Positions 86-18,848 of a DNA stretch of 18,889 nt are shown one piece after another. This DNA comes from Candidatus Aminicenantota bacterium (GTDB lineage Bacteria; Acidobacteriota; Aminicenantia; Aminicenantales; Aminicenantaceae). How positions within the stretch are numbered: position 1 is the first letter of the stretch; each line of letters opens with the position of its first letter. Made by a program: the position numbers and the translations under genes. A model generated the notes under the pieces. It was not told where the DNA came from. It searched no databases and was given only the letters and a program-made list of their open reading frames with translations. The DNA lies in contig JAFGNQ010000188.1 in the NCBI GenBank assembly GCA_016926925.1, forward strand, positions 1 through 18,889, written 5' to 3'.

Positions 86-133
86 ATGAGAAATGTTGAT
101 ATGTTTGATAATCCAAGTATGGAAGTTTCTCAT
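86..133. repeat. Weak inverted repeat downstream of the receiver gene
   Basis: The 8-bp arms ATGAGAAA (86-93) and TTTCTCAT (126-133) are perfectly complementary across a 32-nt gap. A second short hairpin, TCATCC/GGATGA (208-213 and 219-224), lies 12 nt past the receiver gene's stop codon. Neither has a U-tract on the minus strand, so neither is a convincing intrinsic terminator. The rest of 1-236 shows no gene that I can support. Confidence 0.25.
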
Positions 134-236
134 TTGTTTCTTTGAACAGCCCAAAAATGTTTCTGTTTTCGATGTCATTCTTATCTGTAATCGATATTTT
201 TTAAGACTCATCCAGGCCGGATGATTGAATACGGAA

Positions 237-12042: not shown

Positions 12043-12891
12043 CTAAAACTGATGATAATTGATCAACCGAATTCCGCGATCGGAGACAACATCCTTCAGT
12101 CGTTTATTCATCACTGCTCTCATCTCTTGTTCTCTGAACCTGTTTATGGTGTAGGCTCCGACGGTTTTCTCTAACTCTATCATGTCTTCCCTTAGAAATC
12201 CAGGATGAACCATAATTTCCGTAACTCCTTCCTTCAGATGGAGCAATGTTTTTTCGAGTCTTTGCGGCGTCATGCAGCCGGTGTCGCAGATTCCTCGGAA
12301 GTGGTCGGGGAACTTGATGCCTTCATCGGCCATCCTCTTTTTCATGGAGGCACTGGAGAAGGAAATGAAAGCCGATTTGCCCATTTGGGTGAGCCTGGCC
12401 GAAAAGCAAAATTCCCGGACAAAACGGATTTTAGGAATCCGGTATTCCTTTGCCAGGCGCATCACAATCTTGAGAATGGGTTTCAACATATGGACGTGCT
12501 TTTCGCTGTCGAGGTGGCTCGGCGCTATGCCCGCATTCAAGACCTTTTCTATTTGGAGCCTCATTTCTTTTTCGACTTCGTCCAGTTCAATTTTTCTCCG
12601 TATGAGCCGCCAATACAATCGAACAAGATCCGGCCGGAATCTTCCGTCTTCGGATACCAAACTCCCGAGTTCGCCCGCTGCAGAGAGCGGGTTCCCTCTT
12701 AAGATATTCAGATGCACGCCGACGCCGAGGCTTTTGTTCTGCCCGGCCAGTTCTACGGCCTGATCGAAGCCGGGTGTGTTGGCCATCAGACTGGCGTTGG
12801 TCAGAATTCCCTCTCTATGGGCCAGAAGGACACCTTCGTTCACGCTTTGAATCAATCCGAAGTCATCGGCATTGACGATTACGCTTTTCAT
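12043..12891 (-). CDS. ChbG/YdjC (HpnK-like) carbohydrate deacetylase
   Basis: A 282-residue YdjC-fold, metal-dependent deacetylase. The NADDFG motif (7-12) supplies the catalytic and metal Asp residues D9 and D10. H60 (GVGVHLN) and H126, H132 and H134 (SHLDSEKHVHML) are the expected metal and base residues, and IMVHPG follows near 226-231. Family members remove N-acetyl groups from chitin-derived oligosaccharides (ChbG) or from a hopanoid-linked GlcNAc (HpnK). The length is normal. The start overlaps the stop of the upstream B12-radical SAM gene (ATGA) and the GT2 follows after 3 nt, so the three are probably co-translated. By context it deacetylates an amino sugar on a lipid carrier or on the finished glycolipid. 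Confidence 0.88.
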   Translation of the reverse strand: MKSVIVNADDFGLIQSVNEGVLLAHREGILTNASLMANTPGFDQAVELAGQNKSLGVGVHLNILRGNPLSAAGELGSLVSEDGRFRPDLVRLYWRLIRRKIELDEVEKEMRLQIEKVLNAGIAPSHLDSEKHVHMLKPILKIVMRLAKEYRIPKIRFVREFCFSARLTQMGKSAFISFSSASMKKRMADEGIKFPDHFRGICDTGCMTPQRLEKTLLHLKEGVTEIMVHPGFLREDMIELEKTVGAYTINRFREQEMRAVMNKRLKDVVSDRGIRLINYHQF

Positions 12892-14273
12892 GATTTTCGA
12901 AAGAGGGACAGTGCATTGGAAGCAGCCAATTTCAGGTCCCTGAAGCTTCGGATCTGGCGGATTTTCTTAAACAGGTAGGAAGGCCTCAAATAGAACCCCC
13001 TGACTGCCTGACTGCGAAGCCGCCAAACATCTTCTTTGCTGAGTTTGTCCGTTTCTATGACGGGGAAATCCGTGCTGTCGAAAAAATCCTCATCCGAGCT
13101 GAGCCAGCCCATCTTCAGAGCTTCCCGGCGAAGAGGCGTTCCGATGTCGGGCGTGGCAATGGCAAAGGAGGCGAAGTCGAGATCAAGCTGCTTGGCCAGA
13201 TCGATCGTCTCGCGAATGGACTCATGGTCATCCCCAGGCAGCCCGATAATGAAATATCCCAAGACCCGGATTTTGTATGTGTTCAGCATACGGACGGTGT
13301 CTTTGATTTCTTGAGTGGTGATCGCTTTTGAATATTTTTTCAGGATTTCATCGCTTCCGCTCTCGATACCGAGAGAAACCGTGTGACAGCCCGCCTTCCT
13401 CATGTGCTTGATCTTTTCCTCGTTGAGCGCTTTGATATCCGCGTTGCAGCTCCACGTAAAATTCAAGTTGCCTTCTAGAATCTTCCGACAGATTTCAACC
13501 ACGCGCTTGGTGTTGATAGTGAACGTGGGATCCTGGAAGAGGATTTCCTTGACGCCGAGCCGCGAAAGCAGTTCCAGCTCGGCCATTACCCCGTCCACAT
13601 CCCGTGCCCTATAGCCGAAGGCGCCGGCCGTGCAGAATCCGCAGCTGTAGGGACAGCCTAAAGAGGTAATCACCACCGTAAAGGGGAACCTCCTGGCGAT
13701 CGGGATGCGGTACTTGCGAAAATCGAAGAGGTCGTGTCTGGGAAGGGGAACATGAAAACTCAACGGAGCTTTTTCTTGACTGGAAATCAATTGCCCGTTT
13801 CGCCGGAAGACAAGCCCCCGCAGCGGGTCATCATCTCCCCCTTTCAGGTAAGAAACGATGTTTTCTTCACTGAAATCCGTCAGCAAGGCATCGACGGCTG
13901 GGTATTTCTCCATGAACTCCGGGCCGATGAACTTCAGAATGCCGGCGCTGGCCACGATCCGGATGTCCTGCCGCTCTTTGATCCTCTTCATCAGCTGCAG
14001 GTCGGACTTCATGGTGGCCGTGCCCGTCGTGAAAATTAAGGCCTCGGCCCCGGAGCTGGCCACGAAGTCGAGGACGTCATTTTCGGAAATCCGGTTGATG
14101 ATGGCATCCACGACAGTGACGGAAAAGTCCCTGTCTAAAATACCGCTCAGATAGATGAGATCCTGCGGCGGCCAGTAATAGTCCGCCTTGGACGAGAAGC
14201 TGCAGTAGTAGTCCCGAATGTAGAGCTTGTCTCCGGGCGGATTCAGTAGAATGACTTTCTTTTTTTCGGGCAT
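12888..14273 (-). CDS. B12-binding-domain radical SAM protein
   Basis: A 461-residue protein from the ATG at 14273. Residues 1-145 form a Rossmann-like cobalamin-binding domain (KKVILLNPPGD, then VTVVDAI and GAEALIFTTGTATM). No DxHxxG motif is visible, so B12 would bind without the usual lower-ligand His. The radical SAM cluster is the canonical C207-PYS-C211-GF-C214. It is followed by the barrel motifs LFQDPTF, SLGIESGSDEILKKY and YFIIGLPGD. The C-terminus is helical and basic. Related enzymes methylate unreactive carbons or rearrange sugars; HpnJ makes the hopanoid cyclitol ether. The promoter at 14304-14332 lies downstream of the longer in-frame start at 14387, so the shorter start is preferred. 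First gene of the five-gene minus operon. Confidence 0.88.
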   Translation of the reverse strand: MPEKKKVILLNPPGDKLYIRDYYCSFSSKADYYWPPQDLIYLSGILDRDFSVTVVDAIINRISENDVLDFVASSGAEALIFTTGTATMKSDLQLMKRIKERQDIRIVASAGILKFIGPEFMEKYPAVDALLTDFSEENIVSYLKGGDDDPLRGLVFRRNGQLISSQEKAPLSFHVPLPRHDLFDFRKYRIPIARRFPFTVVITSLGCPYSCGFCTAGAFGYRARDVDGVMAELELLSRLGVKEILFQDPTFTINTKRVVEICRKILEGNLNFTWSCNADIKALNEEKIKHMRKAGCHTVSLGIESGSDEILKKYSKAITTQEIKDTVRMLNTYKIRVLGYFIIGLPGDDHESIRETIDLAKQLDLDFASFAIATPDIGTPLRREALKMGWLSSDEDFFDSTDFPVIETDKLSKEDVWRLRSQAVRGFYLRPSYLFKKIRQIRSFRDLKLAASNALSLFRKS

Positions 14274-14303
14274 CCTATTCCAACAGGAAAAAATTTTCCT
14301 CAA

Positions 14304-14332
14304 ATTATACCACAGCAGCCTTCTTCTTACAC
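14304..14332 (-). promoter_or_regulatory. Extended -10 promoter of the five-gene minus operon
   Basis: On the minus strand TGGTATAAT places a consensus TATAAT at 14304-14309 with an extended-10 TG. The -35 at 14327-14332 (GTGTAA) is poor, as is common for extended -10 promoters. The start site would be near 14297, inside a perfect 7-bp palindrome AGGAAAA/TTTTCCT (14285-14291 and 14294-14300) that could be an operator or a leader hairpin. Confidence 0.6.
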
Positions 14333-14450
14333 ATCCCTTTTCGCTCCTCGTTTGCATTTCCGCATCCGTGATAGTATTAGGGATCATTTAAACAGGTAGA
14401 GCTCGCCCGATCCATATTCGATGTCAACTCCACCGAATAAAATATCTTGG

Positions 14451-14485
14451 GACATGTACCGATTTAGTTAAATCGGTAACGTGTC
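14451..14485. repeat. 16-bp hairpin, possible insertion-element end
   Basis: GACATGT plus ACCGATTTA (14451-14466) pairs with TAAATCGGT (14469-14477) and ACGTGTC (14479-14485). The two inner bases GT are unpaired, there is one bulged A (14478) and one G-T wobble. A hairpin this tight in a gene-free stretch is unusual. The ACCGATT core reminds me of IS481-type termini, but no transposase is nearby. Confidence 0.5.
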
Positions 14486-14512
14486 ACAGATTTTTGGACC
14501 GCAAACAGGCTG

Positions 14513-14541
14513 CAACGAAGGCTTTGTGACAAGATCGGCTC
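14513..14541 (+). repeat. Repeat copy A, truncated relative of the 14625-14749 element
   Basis: These 29 bases match 14707-14735 at 28 positions (C to T at one). After 14541 the similarity stops, then resumes at 14611-14623 (GAACAGCCCAGGC, against GAACGACCCAGGC at 14738-14750). Copy A is therefore the right half of the same element, split by about 70 nt of unrelated palindromic sequence. Its left half is missing. Confidence 0.6.
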
Positions 14542-14608
14542 ACCTGTAAGGTGAAAACCACTGATAATAAAATATCAATGTTTTTTAAAAAGACTATCAG
14601 TGGTTTTT
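14541..14608. repeat. Palindromic insert, terminator-like
   Basis: A small hairpin CACCT/AGGTG (14541-14553) is followed by 13-bp arms AAAACCACTGATA (14554-14566) and TATCAGTGGTTTT (14595-14607) around a 28-nt AT-rich loop. A-tract, stem and T-tract together resemble a bidirectional intrinsic terminator, except that the loop is long. It sits between the two matching parts of repeat copy A, so it may be a small inserted element. Confidence 0.5.
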
Positions 14609-14624
14609 ATGAACAGCCCAGGCC

Positions 14625-14749
14625 CCTGGGTCGTTCACGGGTCGAGGTTGGTGCAAAGCCAAGGCAGTTGCCCCTGAGGTTGTAGTCAACTACGCCGAAG
14701 GGGTGACAACGAAGGTTTTGTGACAAGATCGGCTCGTGAACGACCCAGG
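14625..14749 (+). other. 125-nt near-complete hairpin element, candidate structured RNA
   Basis: The outer arms CCTGGGTCGTTCACG (14625-14639) and CGTGAACGACCCAGG (14735-14749) are a perfect 15-bp match. Inward, the strands keep pairing: 14640-14645 with 14729-14734, 14648-14650 with 14724-14726, CAAAGCC (14654-14660) with GGTTTTG (14714-14720), GTTG with CAAC, CCCCT (14671-14675) with AGGGG (14699-14703), a tandem GA/GA step, GGT/GCC, then GTAG-TCAA-CTAC (14682-14693) as a tetraloop cap. Several pairs are G-U only if the plus strand is transcribed. The left arm can instead fold back on 14611-14622. The asnB promoter starts two bases after the right arm. The family is not recognised; a palindromic mobile repeat is the alternative. 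Confidence 0.55.
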
Positions 14750-14751
14750 CA

Positions 14752-14780
14752 TTGATATTTGGTAGGCGTTCGGCTACATT
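14752..14780 (+). promoter_or_regulatory. Promoter of the asparagine synthase gene
   Basis: TTGATA (14752-14757) and TACATT (14775-14780) are spaced 17 nt. The start would be near 14787, giving a leader of about 13 nt, with AGGA (14790-14793) as ribosome site before ATG 14800. Confidence 0.5.
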
Positions 14781-14799
14781 AGTCACACTAGGAAACCCA

Positions 14800-16683
14800 A
14801 TGTGCGGCATATGCGGTATGTTCTCCGGAAAAGGCCTGGGACCCGAGGCGCAGGAGACCACGAAACGAATGTGTTCGGTCATGGTTCACCGGGGACCGGA
14901 TGACGAGGGCTACTACTTCGATACGAAAATCGCCCTGGGCATGCGGAGGCTGAGTATCATCGACCTGGCCACCGGGCATCAGCCCTTGACCAACGAAAAC
15001 CGCACCGTCTGGGTGGTTTTCAACGGCGAGATCTACAACCATCCGGACTTGAGAAAAGAGCTCATCCGGAAAGGGCATACTTTCGCCACCAAATCGGATA
15101 CGGAAGTCATCGTTCATCTTTACGAGGAGGAAGGTGAAGATTTCGTCCACCGACTGAATGGGATGTTCGCCATCGCCGTCTGGGATCAGAAAAAAGGAAC
15201 CCTGATCCTGGCAAGGGACCGGCTCGGTATCAAACCCCTCCACTATTACAGCATGGCCGGTGCACTCGTATTCTCCTCGGAAATCAAATCCATTCTGAAG
15301 ACGGACTACTCAAGAGAACTGGACTTGGAGTCGATGTCTCGTTTTTTTACCTTCGAGTATATTCCGGCGCCGGCCACGATTTTCAAGGGGATCCGGAAGC
15401 TTCTTCCCGGCCATATGATCATCGCCGACAACGACGGCGTCCGGATCAAACGCTACTGGGATATCCGCCACACGGCCGCCGAGAAATCCCGGCTCACGGA
15501 AGACGCTTACATGGAGGAAATTTATCGCCTTCTGAGGGAGTCTGTTAAAAGGCGGCTGATCAGTGATGTCCCCCTGGGCGTTTTCCTCAGCGGAGGCATG
15601 GATTCGAGCTCGATCACGGCCCTGATGAGCGAAGTGACGGATTCGCAGATCAAGACCTTTGCCATCGGCTTCAAGGAAGAGAGCTTCAACGAGCTTAGCT
15701 ACGCCAAAATCGTGGCCGAGCGCTTCGGCACGGACCACCGGGAATTCGTAGTGGAGTCGAACCTGGTCAAGGACCTGGTTCCGACCCTCATCGAATATCT
15801 GGACGAGCCTCTGGCCGACGCCTCCATCATCCCCACCTACATCATTTCCAAACTGGCCCGGGAACATGTCACCGTCGCCCTTGCCGGCGAGGGCGGAGAT
15901 GAGCTCTTCGCGGGCTACGACACCTACAAGGCCTACCAGGTAGCCCGGCTCTACAGAAAAGTTCCCTCACTTATCCGCAACGGCCTCGTCAAGAAAATCG
16001 TCCCTCTCCTGCCTGCCTCGAAAAAGAGGTTGAGTTTCGAGTTCAAAGCCAAAAAATTCATATCGGGAATAGATTATCCTCCGGAAATTTCGAATTCCAT
16101 CTGGTGGGGCGCCTACAATCCGGCCGATAAAGAGGGACTGTTCGCGGCCGGTCTCCAAGAAAAGATCGCAGAAGACGTGTTCGCACCTATCACCACGCAC
16201 CTCGGCAACACGAAGGCGGAAGAGATGGTGGACAGGATCGGCTATCTGGATTTAAAGCTCTACCTCCAGGATGATCTGCTGGTGAAATCTGATAGAATGA
16301 GCATGGCTAATTCGCTGGAGATCCGGGTTCCCTTTCTCGATCACACATTCGTCAATTTCGCCACATCCATACCCGGCTCCCTGAAGCTTAAAGGGATGCA
16401 GACCAAATACATTCTGAAGAAAAGCATGGCCAAAATCCTCCCCCGGGAAATCCTCACGCGGAAGAAAATCGGATTCGATATCCCTCTGGGATCCTGGATC
16501 AGACACGAGCTCAAAGATTTCGTCACCGATGTCCTATCCCCGGCTAACATGAGCCATGGCTTTTTCGATCACACCTACATCGACAGGCTGCTGAAAGAAC
16601 ATGTTCAAGGTGCACACAACCACAGGCAGTTGCTTTGGCCTTTGATCATATTCCAATTTTGGTACGACCATTACATGAAGTAA
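14800..16683 (+). CDS. asnB: Asparagine synthase (glutamine-hydrolysing), AsnB family
   Basis: A 627-residue two-domain amidotransferase. The initiator Met is followed by C2-G-I-C-G, the N-terminal-nucleophile glutaminase cysteine. R49/R50, N75-G-E77 and D100 form the glutamine pocket. The synthetase domain carries the ATP-binding PP-loop SGGMDSS (264-270), then AGEGGDELFAGY and the C-terminal RVPFLDHTFV and KKIGFDIPLGSWIR, all intact, so it should be active. It makes asparagine from aspartate, or amidates another carboxylate using glutamine nitrogen. Long AsnB paralogues of this kind are frequent in exopolysaccharide clusters, where they may amidate uronic acids. ATG 14800 is fixed by the need for Cys2 after Met; in-frame codons upstream would bury the nucleophile. 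A methyltransferase gene follows after about 150 nt. Confidence 0.93.
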   Translation: MCGICGMFSGKGLGPEAQETTKRMCSVMVHRGPDDEGYYFDTKIALGMRRLSIIDLATGHQPLTNENRTVWVVFNGEIYNHPDLRKELIRKGHTFATKSDTEVIVHLYEEEGEDFVHRLNGMFAIAVWDQKKGTLILARDRLGIKPLHYYSMAGALVFSSEIKSILKTDYSRELDLESMSRFFTFEYIPAPATIFKGIRKLLPGHMIIADNDGVRIKRYWDIRHTAAEKSRLTEDAYMEEIYRLLRESVKRRLISDVPLGVFLSGGMDSSSITALMSEVTDSQIKTFAIGFKEESFNELSYAKIVAERFGTDHREFVVESNLVKDLVPTLIEYLDEPLADASIIPTYIISKLAREHVTVALAGEGGDELFAGYDTYKAYQVARLYRKVPSLIRNGLVKKIVPLLPASKKRLSFEFKAKKFISGIDYPPEISNSIWWGAYNPADKEGLFAAGLQEKIAEDVFAPITTHLGNTKAEEMVDRIGYLDLKLYLQDDLLVKSDRMSMANSLEIRVPFLDHTFVNFATSIPGSLKLKGMQTKYILKKSMAKILPREILTRKKIGFDIPLGSWIRHELKDFVTDVLSPANMSHGFFDHTYIDRLLKEHVQGAHNHRQLLWPLIIFQFWYDHYMK

Positions 16684-17675: not shown

Positions 17676-18848
17676 ATGTGGATAAAAAGAAGTTGCGAAC
17701 CTACGCTTTCCACGCTTTTCAGCCAGTTTCCATCCGTGGTCGTAACCGGTCCGCGGCAGGTCGGCAAAACCTCTCTGGTCCGAAGGATTTTCCCAGACCT
17801 GGAATACGTTTCGCTGGATCTGCCCTCCCTTGCAGAGCAGGCCGAGAAAAGCCCGAATTCCTTCCTGAACAGCCGTAAAGAGCCGCTGATCATCGATGAA
17901 ATCCAGTACGCTCCATCGCTTCCGAGACATCTTAAAGTGAAAATCGACGAAAATAAGAGACCGGGCCGTTTTATCCTGACAGGCTCTCAAAATTTTTCCC
18001 TCATGCAGGGCGTTTCCGAAAGCCTGGCGGGCCGCTGCGGGATCCTTAACATGCTGAACCTTTCTGCAGCTGAGGTCAAGCAGGCCTTCGACCGCTACGA
18101 TGAAAATGCCTACCTTTTGAAAGGCGGCTTTCCGGAACTCTATGAGAGACCCGACATCGATCCTCGGCTCTGGTATGCCTCGTATTTGAGCACCTACCTG
18201 GAAAGGGACGTCAGGAATATTCTCAATGTCGGAAGCCTGAGGGATTTCGATCGTTTTCTCCGGGCAGCGGCGGCAAGGACCTCTCAGATTCTCTCCTACT
18301 CCGAACTGGCAAGAGACGTGGGCATCTCGCCGAACACGGCCAGACAATGGATTTCCGTCCTCCAGGCCTCAGGCCAGATATTTCTACTGGAGCCCTATCA
18401 TCGCAATCTTGGAAAACGATTGATCAAATCACCGAAAATCTACTTCTGCGATACCGGCCTGGCGCTTTTTCTTATGGGTTTCGACACGTGGGAGGCGGTG
18501 AGCCGGCACCCCGTTGTCGGCGCGATTTGGGAAACGCATGTCGTCATGCAGGTGGTGAAGCATTATCAATCGTCGGCCAGAAGGGTTCCCCTCTGGTTCT
18601 GGCGCACGATACACGGAGCGGAAGTCGACCTGCTTGTCGAACGGGGCGGAAGGTTTGTCGCTGTCGAAGCCAAATTCTCAGAAAGCCCGGACAAGGCAAA
18701 CCTCAAAGGCATTCTAGCCTTCAAAAAGTTCTACGGCGGGGATTTCTTTGAAAAAGGCCTCCTCGCCTGCCGGACTCCTCATCCTTATCCTCTATCCGAG
18801 GAGGTCAGCGCCGTTCCAGGCAGTCTGATCGACCTTCACTTGTCCTGA
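17676..18848 (+). CDS. AAA-family ATPase with winged-helix and DUF4143 C-terminal domain
   Basis: A 390-residue protein of the AAA_14/DUF4143 type. Walker A is GPRQVGKT (25-32), Walker B is LIIDEIQ (71-77), and a sensor-like TGSQNF follows at 102-107. A helix-turn-helix stretch, YSELARDVGISPNTARQWISVL, lies in the middle. The C-terminal part (GAIWETHVV, then GAEVDLLVERGGRFVAVEAKF) has the acidic/Lys spacing of a PD-(D/E)XK-like nuclease fold, as is usual for DUF4143. These ATPases are widespread, often in accessory regions, and their function is poorly known. The start coincides with the predicted transcription start, so translation is probably leaderless. It seems unrelated to the glycan genes and marks the edge of the cluster. 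The last 41 bases of the window show nothing. Confidence 0.88.
   Translation: MWIKRSCEPTLSTLFSQFPSVVVTGPRQVGKTSLVRRIFPDLEYVSLDLPSLAEQAEKSPNSFLNSRKEPLIIDEIQYAPSLPRHLKVKIDENKRPGRFILTGSQNFSLMQGVSESLAGRCGILNMLNLSAAEVKQAFDRYDENAYLLKGGFPELYERPDIDPRLWYASYLSTYLERDVRNILNVGSLRDFDRFLRAAAARTSQILSYSELARDVGISPNTARQWISVLQASGQIFLLEPYHRNLGKRLIKSPKIYFCDTGLALFLMGFDTWEAVSRHPVVGAIWETHVVMQVVKHYQSSARRVPLWFWRTIHGAEVDLLVERGGRFVAVEAKFSESPDKANLKGILAFKKFYGGDFFEKGLLACRTPHPYPLSEEVSAVPGSLIDLHLS

What the first reader, a model, noticed from the sequence alone, without database searches (positions are those of the whole stretch)
14625..14749. 125-nt element that folds almost end to end and favours plus-strand RNA
Seen directly: perfect 15-bp outer arms, then a near-continuous inner helix capped by a TCAA tetraloop. 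A tandem GA/GA step sits between the CCCCT/AGGGG and GGT/GCC helices. Five inner pairs (14640-14734, 14642-14732, 14652-14722, 14653-14721, 14658-14716) are G-U if the plus strand is transcribed but A-C mismatches on the other strand. This wobble bias and the sheared-GA-like step are what a selected RNA structure would show. Immediately downstream is the asnB promoter, so it could be a small RNA, an insulator or an interspersed structured repeat.
Basis: partly seen in the sequence, partly recalled or inferred. Interest (0 to 1): 0.7.

Follow-up and report, generated by a model that had tools for sequence, protein, structure and literature searches.

The report
Three-copy palindromic repeat upstream of asnB
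In a bacterium related to Aminicenantes, a short DNA unit occurs three times in alternating directions just ahead of a gene, so that its transcript could fold into a long rod; the fold is real and prefers one strand, but no relatives could be found to prove a function.

Summary
The stretch 14625-14749 folds end to end (RNA z -10.4 on plus, lowest of 724 strand-windows; -8.1 on minus). Its 18 mismatched or wobble positions are one-sided: 8 G.U against 1 A.C, and 9 purine-purine against 0 pyrimidine-pyrimidine. 1 of 2000 simulated decaying palindromes matched its strand preference.

Its 3' arm (R2) has an upstream copy (R1) in three collinear blocks (13/15, 28/29, 11/13), interrupted by two hairpins. 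The 5' arm (R') is complementary to both. Folds of growing transcripts pair R' upstream first and with R2 once the end reaches about 14740.

R2 looks like a mosaic: inner part like R1, outer 15 bases like R'. I read the array as a locally duplicated palindromic repeat, built partly by template switching and kept where the plus strand folds.

No homologue was found, but reach was poor: the window's genome is not held, and the one genome-contig scan was a 22-mer. No Rfam family reached its cut-off. A REPIN, attC site, terminator or asnB switch was not supported; a mobile element is not excluded. Transcription and covariation remain untested.

The parts
14625..14749 (+). B, the reported 125-nt hairpin (R' pairs with R2)
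14625..14671 (-). R', inverted unit (5' arm of B), complementary to both R1 and R2
14703..14749 (+). R2, direct unit (3' arm of B); inner 29 nt 28/29 like R1, outer 15 nt 15/15 complementary to R'
14513..14541 (+). R1 inner: second copy of the inner 3' arm, 28/29 identical to 14707-14735
14610..14622 (+). R1 outer: 11/13 identical to 14737-14749 and to the reverse complement of 14625-14637
14423..14437 (+). upstream copy of the B loop region 14685-14699, 13/15
14440..14495 (.). P1, hairpin palindrome between the first two upstream blocks
14554..14607 (.). P2, hairpin with 13-bp perfect arms and flanking A and T runs, splitting R1 inner from R1 outer
14508..14687 (+). alternative fold I: R1 pairs with R', a four-way junction holding P2 and a hairpin of R1 outer with R' outer
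14676..14698 (+). cap region of B with tandem GA/GA (14676-14677 / 14697-14698) and TCAA loop (14686-14689)
14800..16683 (+). asnB, start taken as ATG at 14800 (MCGIC...), 50 nt after B
12888..14273 (-). divergent radical SAM gene; start taken from database protein P0001 (461 aa)

Best explanation
The feature is the downstream half of a local array of one palindromic repeat: R1 (direct, interrupted by hairpins), R' (inverted), R2 (direct), in the intergenic region between divergent radical SAM and asnB genes. Shown: the three related segments, their order, the predicted fold, the strand bias. Inferred: R2 arose by duplication of R1's inner part plus an inverted copy (template switch) of R' outer arm. 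That explains perfect outer arms around an older, imperfect inner helix. Also inferred: when the plus strand is single-stranded, most likely as RNA reading toward asnB, R' pairs with R1 first and re-pairs with R2 into a 125-nt rod. The array is probably a repeat without its own protein, tolerated or kept because its plus-strand transcript folds. At most it shields or spaces the asnB transcript.
For: R1 inner 28/29. R1 outer 11/13 with R2 outer: 1 of 5000 shuffles of the 83-nt stretch as good, and R2 outer has no such match at 37430 other positions. Third collinear block 13/15: 1 of 1000 shuffles, 0 of 310 other stretches. R' against R2 is 15/15 outer and 16/29 inner (Fisher p 0.0015); R2 inner is nearer R1 (28/29) than R' (16/29; p 0.0004). 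Strand bias: 17 of 18 departures favour plus, and 1 of 2000 simulations is as strong; strand difference 25.7 kcal/mol, 0 of 306 other 125-nt windows as large. Folding of growing transcripts: R' mainly with the upstream side up to base 14730, mainly with R2 from 14740.
Against: No homologue in any collection reached, so the age and order of events are guesses. R1 outer also has an 11/13 match at 143-155 of the window, so an 11/13 match of so short a block is not unique. The largest strand difference among the 306 control windows was 24.2, not far below 25.7. Corrected for the inner arms' own base composition the bias is weaker: P 0.028 for purine-purine and 0.072 for G.U. R1 outer is not significantly less like R2 than R1 inner is (p 0.22), so the mosaic rests on the R'-R2 contrast. 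The pairing of R' with R1 follows automatically from R1 resembling R2. No promoter for a plus transcript was recognised upstream.
Confidence: 0.42

Rival explanations
1. A dispersed mobile palindromic repeat of the MITE, ERIC or REPIN kind, of which the array is a cluster of copies, mobilised in trans.
For: Size, intergenic place, palindromic form and clustering in alternating orientation resemble such repeats (passages of PMC2229807, PMC3733652 and PMC3116915). Hairpins P1 and P2 interrupt the upstream copy as nested insertions would. The 12/14 direct repeat 14610-14623 / 14737-14750 could be read as a diverged target-site duplication around 14624-14736.
Against: No duplication of 3-14 bases directly at the ends of the 125-mer, and no TA ends. 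Single units fold only weakly, -8.4 and -10.2 kcal/mol. No clear copy elsewhere in the window. One 22-mer scan of genome contigs gave a single coding match that does not extend.
Confidence: 0.29
2. A stand-alone structured small RNA, or a large structured RNA covering about 14390-14750.
For: z -9.0 for 14388-14800. Plus strand more stable for P1, P2, fold I and B (4 of 4, fold I overlapping P2 and B). Purine-rich loops and a tandem GA step.
Against: No Rfam match at the gathering score; at E up to 5 three sub-threshold matches, one of which overlaps only the last 11 bases of B, on the minus strand. No promoter or compact terminator pattern at 14230-14630. No covariation evidence. The upstream segment 14388-14555 alone shows no strand preference (-51.1 and -51.8).
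Confidence: 0.12
3. A cis-acting switch in the asnB leader in which R1 and R2 compete for R'.
For: Two mutually exclusive folds, with the flip between transcript ends 14730 and 14740. Inner duplex energies almost equal, -27.1 and -26.8 kcal/mol.
Against: No expression platform: no U-run follows B, and predicted accessibility of the ribosome-binding region differs little between seven contexts, mean 0.51-0.62. No ligand domain recognised by Rfam.
Confidence: 0.08
4. A site that works as folded single-stranded DNA, such as a recombination or transposition site.
For: DNA folding prefers plus as well, -35.4 (z -6.9) against -28.0 (z -5.0).
Against: No attC-like R''/R' pair on either strand of 14381-14800. 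Of four window proteins scanned against Pfam none passes the cut-off of a transposase or integrase family; the AAA_14/DUF4143 protein has a sub-cut-off match to a transposase helix-turn-helix model. The other window proteins were not scanned.
Confidence: 0.05
5. A neutral quasi-palindrome or assembly artefact without function.
For: Short-range duplication and template switching make such structures (PMC8794818, abstract and start of the introduction). The copies found are all local. The window's radical SAM protein is in a cluster of one member on one contig of 18889 bases, so the window is probably a single metagenome contig (inference).
Against: The one-sided pattern of mismatches. Artefactual inverted joins would be expected to give perfect arms (recall), whereas the inner arms here match at only 16/29.
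Confidence: 0.18

Closest known systems
Bacterial MITEs and ERIC/IRU (127 bp)
   Same: Short, non-coding, intergenic, end-to-end palindrome of almost the same length; transcribed copies are reported to act as folded RNA, with orientation mattering (passages of PMC2229807).
   Different: No target-site duplication at the hairpin's own ends, no TA ends, no dispersed copies found (in a poor search).
REP dimers, BIMEs and REPINs
   Same: Units in alternating orientation whose inverted pair makes a hairpin (passages of PMC3116915 and PMC3733652; the description of BIMEs is partly from recall).
   Different: The unit is about 45 nt without its own REP hairpin or an unpaired GTAG or CGTC tag. Whether the genome has a RAYT transposase is unknown.
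Quasi-palindromes made by template switching
   Same: Stretch of perfect complementarity set against an imperfect remainder, as a switch would leave (PMC8794818, abstract and start of introduction).
   Different: There ancestral histories were reconstructed; here only one sequence is available.

Membership tests
MITE | terminal inverted repeats, under 200 bp, no protein | tested here: met
   15/15 outer arms, 125 nt
MITE | target-site duplication | tested here: inconclusive
   directly at the ends of the 125-mer, flanks of 3-14 bases share at most 2 letters; but a 12/14 direct repeat, 14610-14623 and 14737-14750, brackets 14624-14736
MITE | TA at the termini | tested here: not met
   ends are CC and GG
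MITE | several dispersed copies | tested here: inconclusive
   no clear copy elsewhere in 18.9 kb; genome not held; one 22-mer scan of genome contigs gave a coding match only
REP/REPIN | unit is itself a hairpin with an unpaired GTAG or CGTC tag | tested here: not met
   R2 and R' alone fold weakly; B has one GTAG per strand, both in the paired cap, and no CGTC
REP/REPIN | RAYT or Y1 transposase in the genome | not testable with these tools
   genome not held
ERIC | sequence match to the enterobacterial repeat | tested here: inconclusive
   no blastn match of 14500-14760 in 72,556 plasmid records; the ERIC consensus itself was not compared
Rfam RNA families | covariance-model score above gathering | tested here: not met
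   0 of 4227 families over the whole window
Integron attC site | RYYYAAC and GTTRRRY boxes (consensus from recall) 30-150 nt apart | tested here: not met
   no match on either strand of 14381-14800
Intrinsic terminator | stem followed by a T run | tested here: not met
   none found at 14380-14820; CATTGATATTTG follows B.
Riboswitch or attenuator | mutually exclusive folds | tested here: met
   R'-R1 against R'-R2, expected from the repeat alone
Riboswitch or attenuator | expression platform changed by the switch | tested here: not met
   no T run; ribosome-binding region accessibility 0.51-0.62 in the seven contexts tried
Conserved structured RNA | compensatory changes among homologues | not testable with these tools
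   no homologue found

The most novel reading that the evidence does not exclude
A new bistable RNA of Aminicenantes-like bacteria, in which two almost identical strands flanking a shared partner compete for it during transcription: a four-way junction forms first and is then displaced by a long rod with purine-rich loops, timing or shielding transcription into asnB.
Probability: 0.1. Interest if true: 0.65.

Novelty: new variant of a known kind. Interest (0 to 1): 0.35.

Why it matters
If the plus-strand bias reflects selection, this is a palindromic repeat caught while being turned into, or kept as, a structured transcript. Its mosaic arms would be a readable example of how template switching builds long hairpins in bacteria. 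It also shows that a hairpin judged alone can be part of a larger array with competing pairings.

Tried and rejected
Homologues by DNA: distant blastn found nothing in phages (14480-14770) or plasmids (14500-14760). One 22-mer scan of genome contigs gave one locus, a match of 24 nt inside what reads as a coding stretch of Flavobacterium. Six DNA-pattern scans of viral contigs for the element gave 9, 2, 19, 27, 32 and 47 stretches. The 138 loci then held were compared with the element: the best match was that 24-nt one, and at 135 seed places tested neither the fold (best -63.6 against -80.4 kcal/mol) nor the identity outside the seed (at most 42 of about 109 positions) suggested a relative. 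The two loci whose inverted arms matched (L012, L013) lie inside long open reading frames of viral contigs, and nothing beyond the arms resembles the element. P2 as a mobile hairpin: 0 stretches in viral contigs with its exact 12-nt arms. A viral-contig search with the radical SAM protein found no relative.

Homologues through open frames that might cross the repeat: no candidate shared three words.

14391-14546 as a second complete hairpin: rejected as weak. Its closing pairing was equalled in 28 of 1000 shuffles and 28 of 568 other stretches, although 14388-14555 as a whole folds better than 200 of 200 shuffles on plus (z -3.6).

R2 masking the asnB ribosome-binding site: considered, not supported.

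Papers: listings for Aminicenantes with palindromic (6 papers) and with noncoding RNA (1 paper) showed no title on such a repeat; a listing on structured RNAs and Acidobacteria gave four papers, none opened. Listings led to the four papers, of which I saw passages (three) or abstract and start of the introduction (one).

Full report
Source. A search with the window's radical SAM protein gave 988 hits, of which 120 were listed. Nine of these show an organism name: eight are Aminicenantes, Aminicenantaceae or Aminicenantales, one is 'Acidobacteriota bacterium'. The query's own cluster has one member, on a contig of 18889 bases. No whole genome is held for the window. The feature lies between a minus-strand radical SAM gene, whose start is taken at 14273 from the database protein, and asnB, whose ATG is taken as 14800.

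Observation. The 125-mer is as described. Its RNA fold is -80.4 kcal/mol on plus and -54.7 on minus. In a scan of 724 strand-windows of 125 nt, the element itself included on both strands, it gave the two lowest z-scores, -10.4 and -8.1 (25 shuffles each). The next, -5.5, was an overlapping window, and the lowest away from this region was -4.4.

Strand bias. Counting U.G 14652-14722, which sits in an internal loop, and leaving out the bulged T at 14681, the arms show 8 G.U against 1 A.C, and 9 purine-purine against 0 pyrimidine-pyrimidine oppositions. Under equal chances 17 of 18 has probability 7e-5. With the inner arms' own base composition as the null, the two parts give 0.028 and 0.072; this is conservative, because the composition includes the effect tested. 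A perfect palindrome decayed with 8 transitions and 9 transversions in the inner arms reached the observed strand difference of 25.7 kcal/mol in 1 of 2000 runs. Of 306 other 125-nt windows none reached it; the largest was 24.2. DNA parameters also prefer plus, so the bias points to a folded plus strand, RNA or single-stranded DNA.

The array. The 3' arm of B has an upstream copy in three collinear blocks. 14423-14437 matches 14685-14699 at 13/15 (1 of 1000 shuffles; 0 of 310 other stretches). 14513-14541 matches 14707-14735 at 28/29. 14610-14622 matches 14737-14749 at 11/13 (1 of 5000 shuffles; R2 outer has no such match at 37430 other positions). Against this, R1 outer itself has an 11/13 match at 143-155, far from the array (blastn E 0.044 for the surrounding 24 nt), so this third block is the least secure. 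Between the blocks lie hairpins P1 and P2. The 5' arm of B is thus an inverted unit lying between two direct ones. Elsewhere in the window the element has no blastn match better than E 0.26, and the 29-mer's best ungapped match is 17/29.

Mosaic. R' and R2 are complementary at 15/15 outer positions but 16/29 inner ones (Fisher p 0.0015). R2 inner is nearer R1 (28/29) than R' (p 0.0004). The R1-R2 contrast between inner and outer parts is not significant (p 0.22). I infer that R2 was assembled from R1 inner plus an inverted copy of R' outer. Template switching is reported to make and mend hairpins (PMC8794818, abstract and start of the introduction). The order of events is not proven.

Competing folds. 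Minimum-energy folds of transcripts starting at 14500 pair R' mainly upstream until the end reaches 14730, and mainly with R2 from 14740 (14 end points tried). Fold I, 14505-14692, has z -6.3 on plus and -4.5 on minus. This competition follows from R1 resembling R2 and is not by itself evidence of a switch. The asnB ribosome-binding region is about equally open in seven contexts, mean 0.51-0.62, and no T run follows B. The promoter-like match at 14752-14780 is at chance level, and none was found at 14230-14630.

Known kinds. No Rfam family matched at the gathering score; of three sub-threshold matches at E up to 5 one overlaps the last 11 bases of B on the minus strand. TA ends and attC boxes were tested and not met, and single units fold only weakly. 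A target-site duplication is absent at the hairpin's own ends, but the 12/14 direct repeat 14610-14623 / 14737-14750 leaves the point open. Passages read on MITEs and ERIC (PMC2229807), GTAG and CGTC repeats (PMC3733652) and REPINs (PMC3116915) give the yardsticks.

Limits. All external searches were blind to the window's own genome. The single genome-contig scan required a match to a 22-mer with one two-way position, so failure to find homologues says little about whether they exist. Transcription, covariation and copy number are all untested.

Noticed in passing
window 14440-14495: Palindrome P1 with arms about 79% complementary; plus strand slightly more stable (-21.4 against -17.0 kcal/mol for 14436-14500).
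   Followed up: partly
window 14554-14607: P2, 13-bp perfect arms with A run before and T run after: the shape of a two-way terminator, but with a long loop. It scores weakly against a microRNA family at E 0.036, far below that family's cut-off.
   Followed up: partly
window 14570-14580 and 14750-14760: 11-nt perfect inverted repeat, AAATATCAATG and CATTGATATTT, one copy in P2 and the other right after B.
   Followed up: no
window 130-153: 24-nt stretch 83% like the end of P2 plus R1 outer, with an exact TGAACAGCCCA (E 0.044 within the window). Chance or a remnant of the same repeat.
   Followed up: partly
window 17676-18848: Protein with AAA_14 and DUF4143 domains and sub-cut-off helix-turn-helix matches, not examined further.
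   Followed up: no
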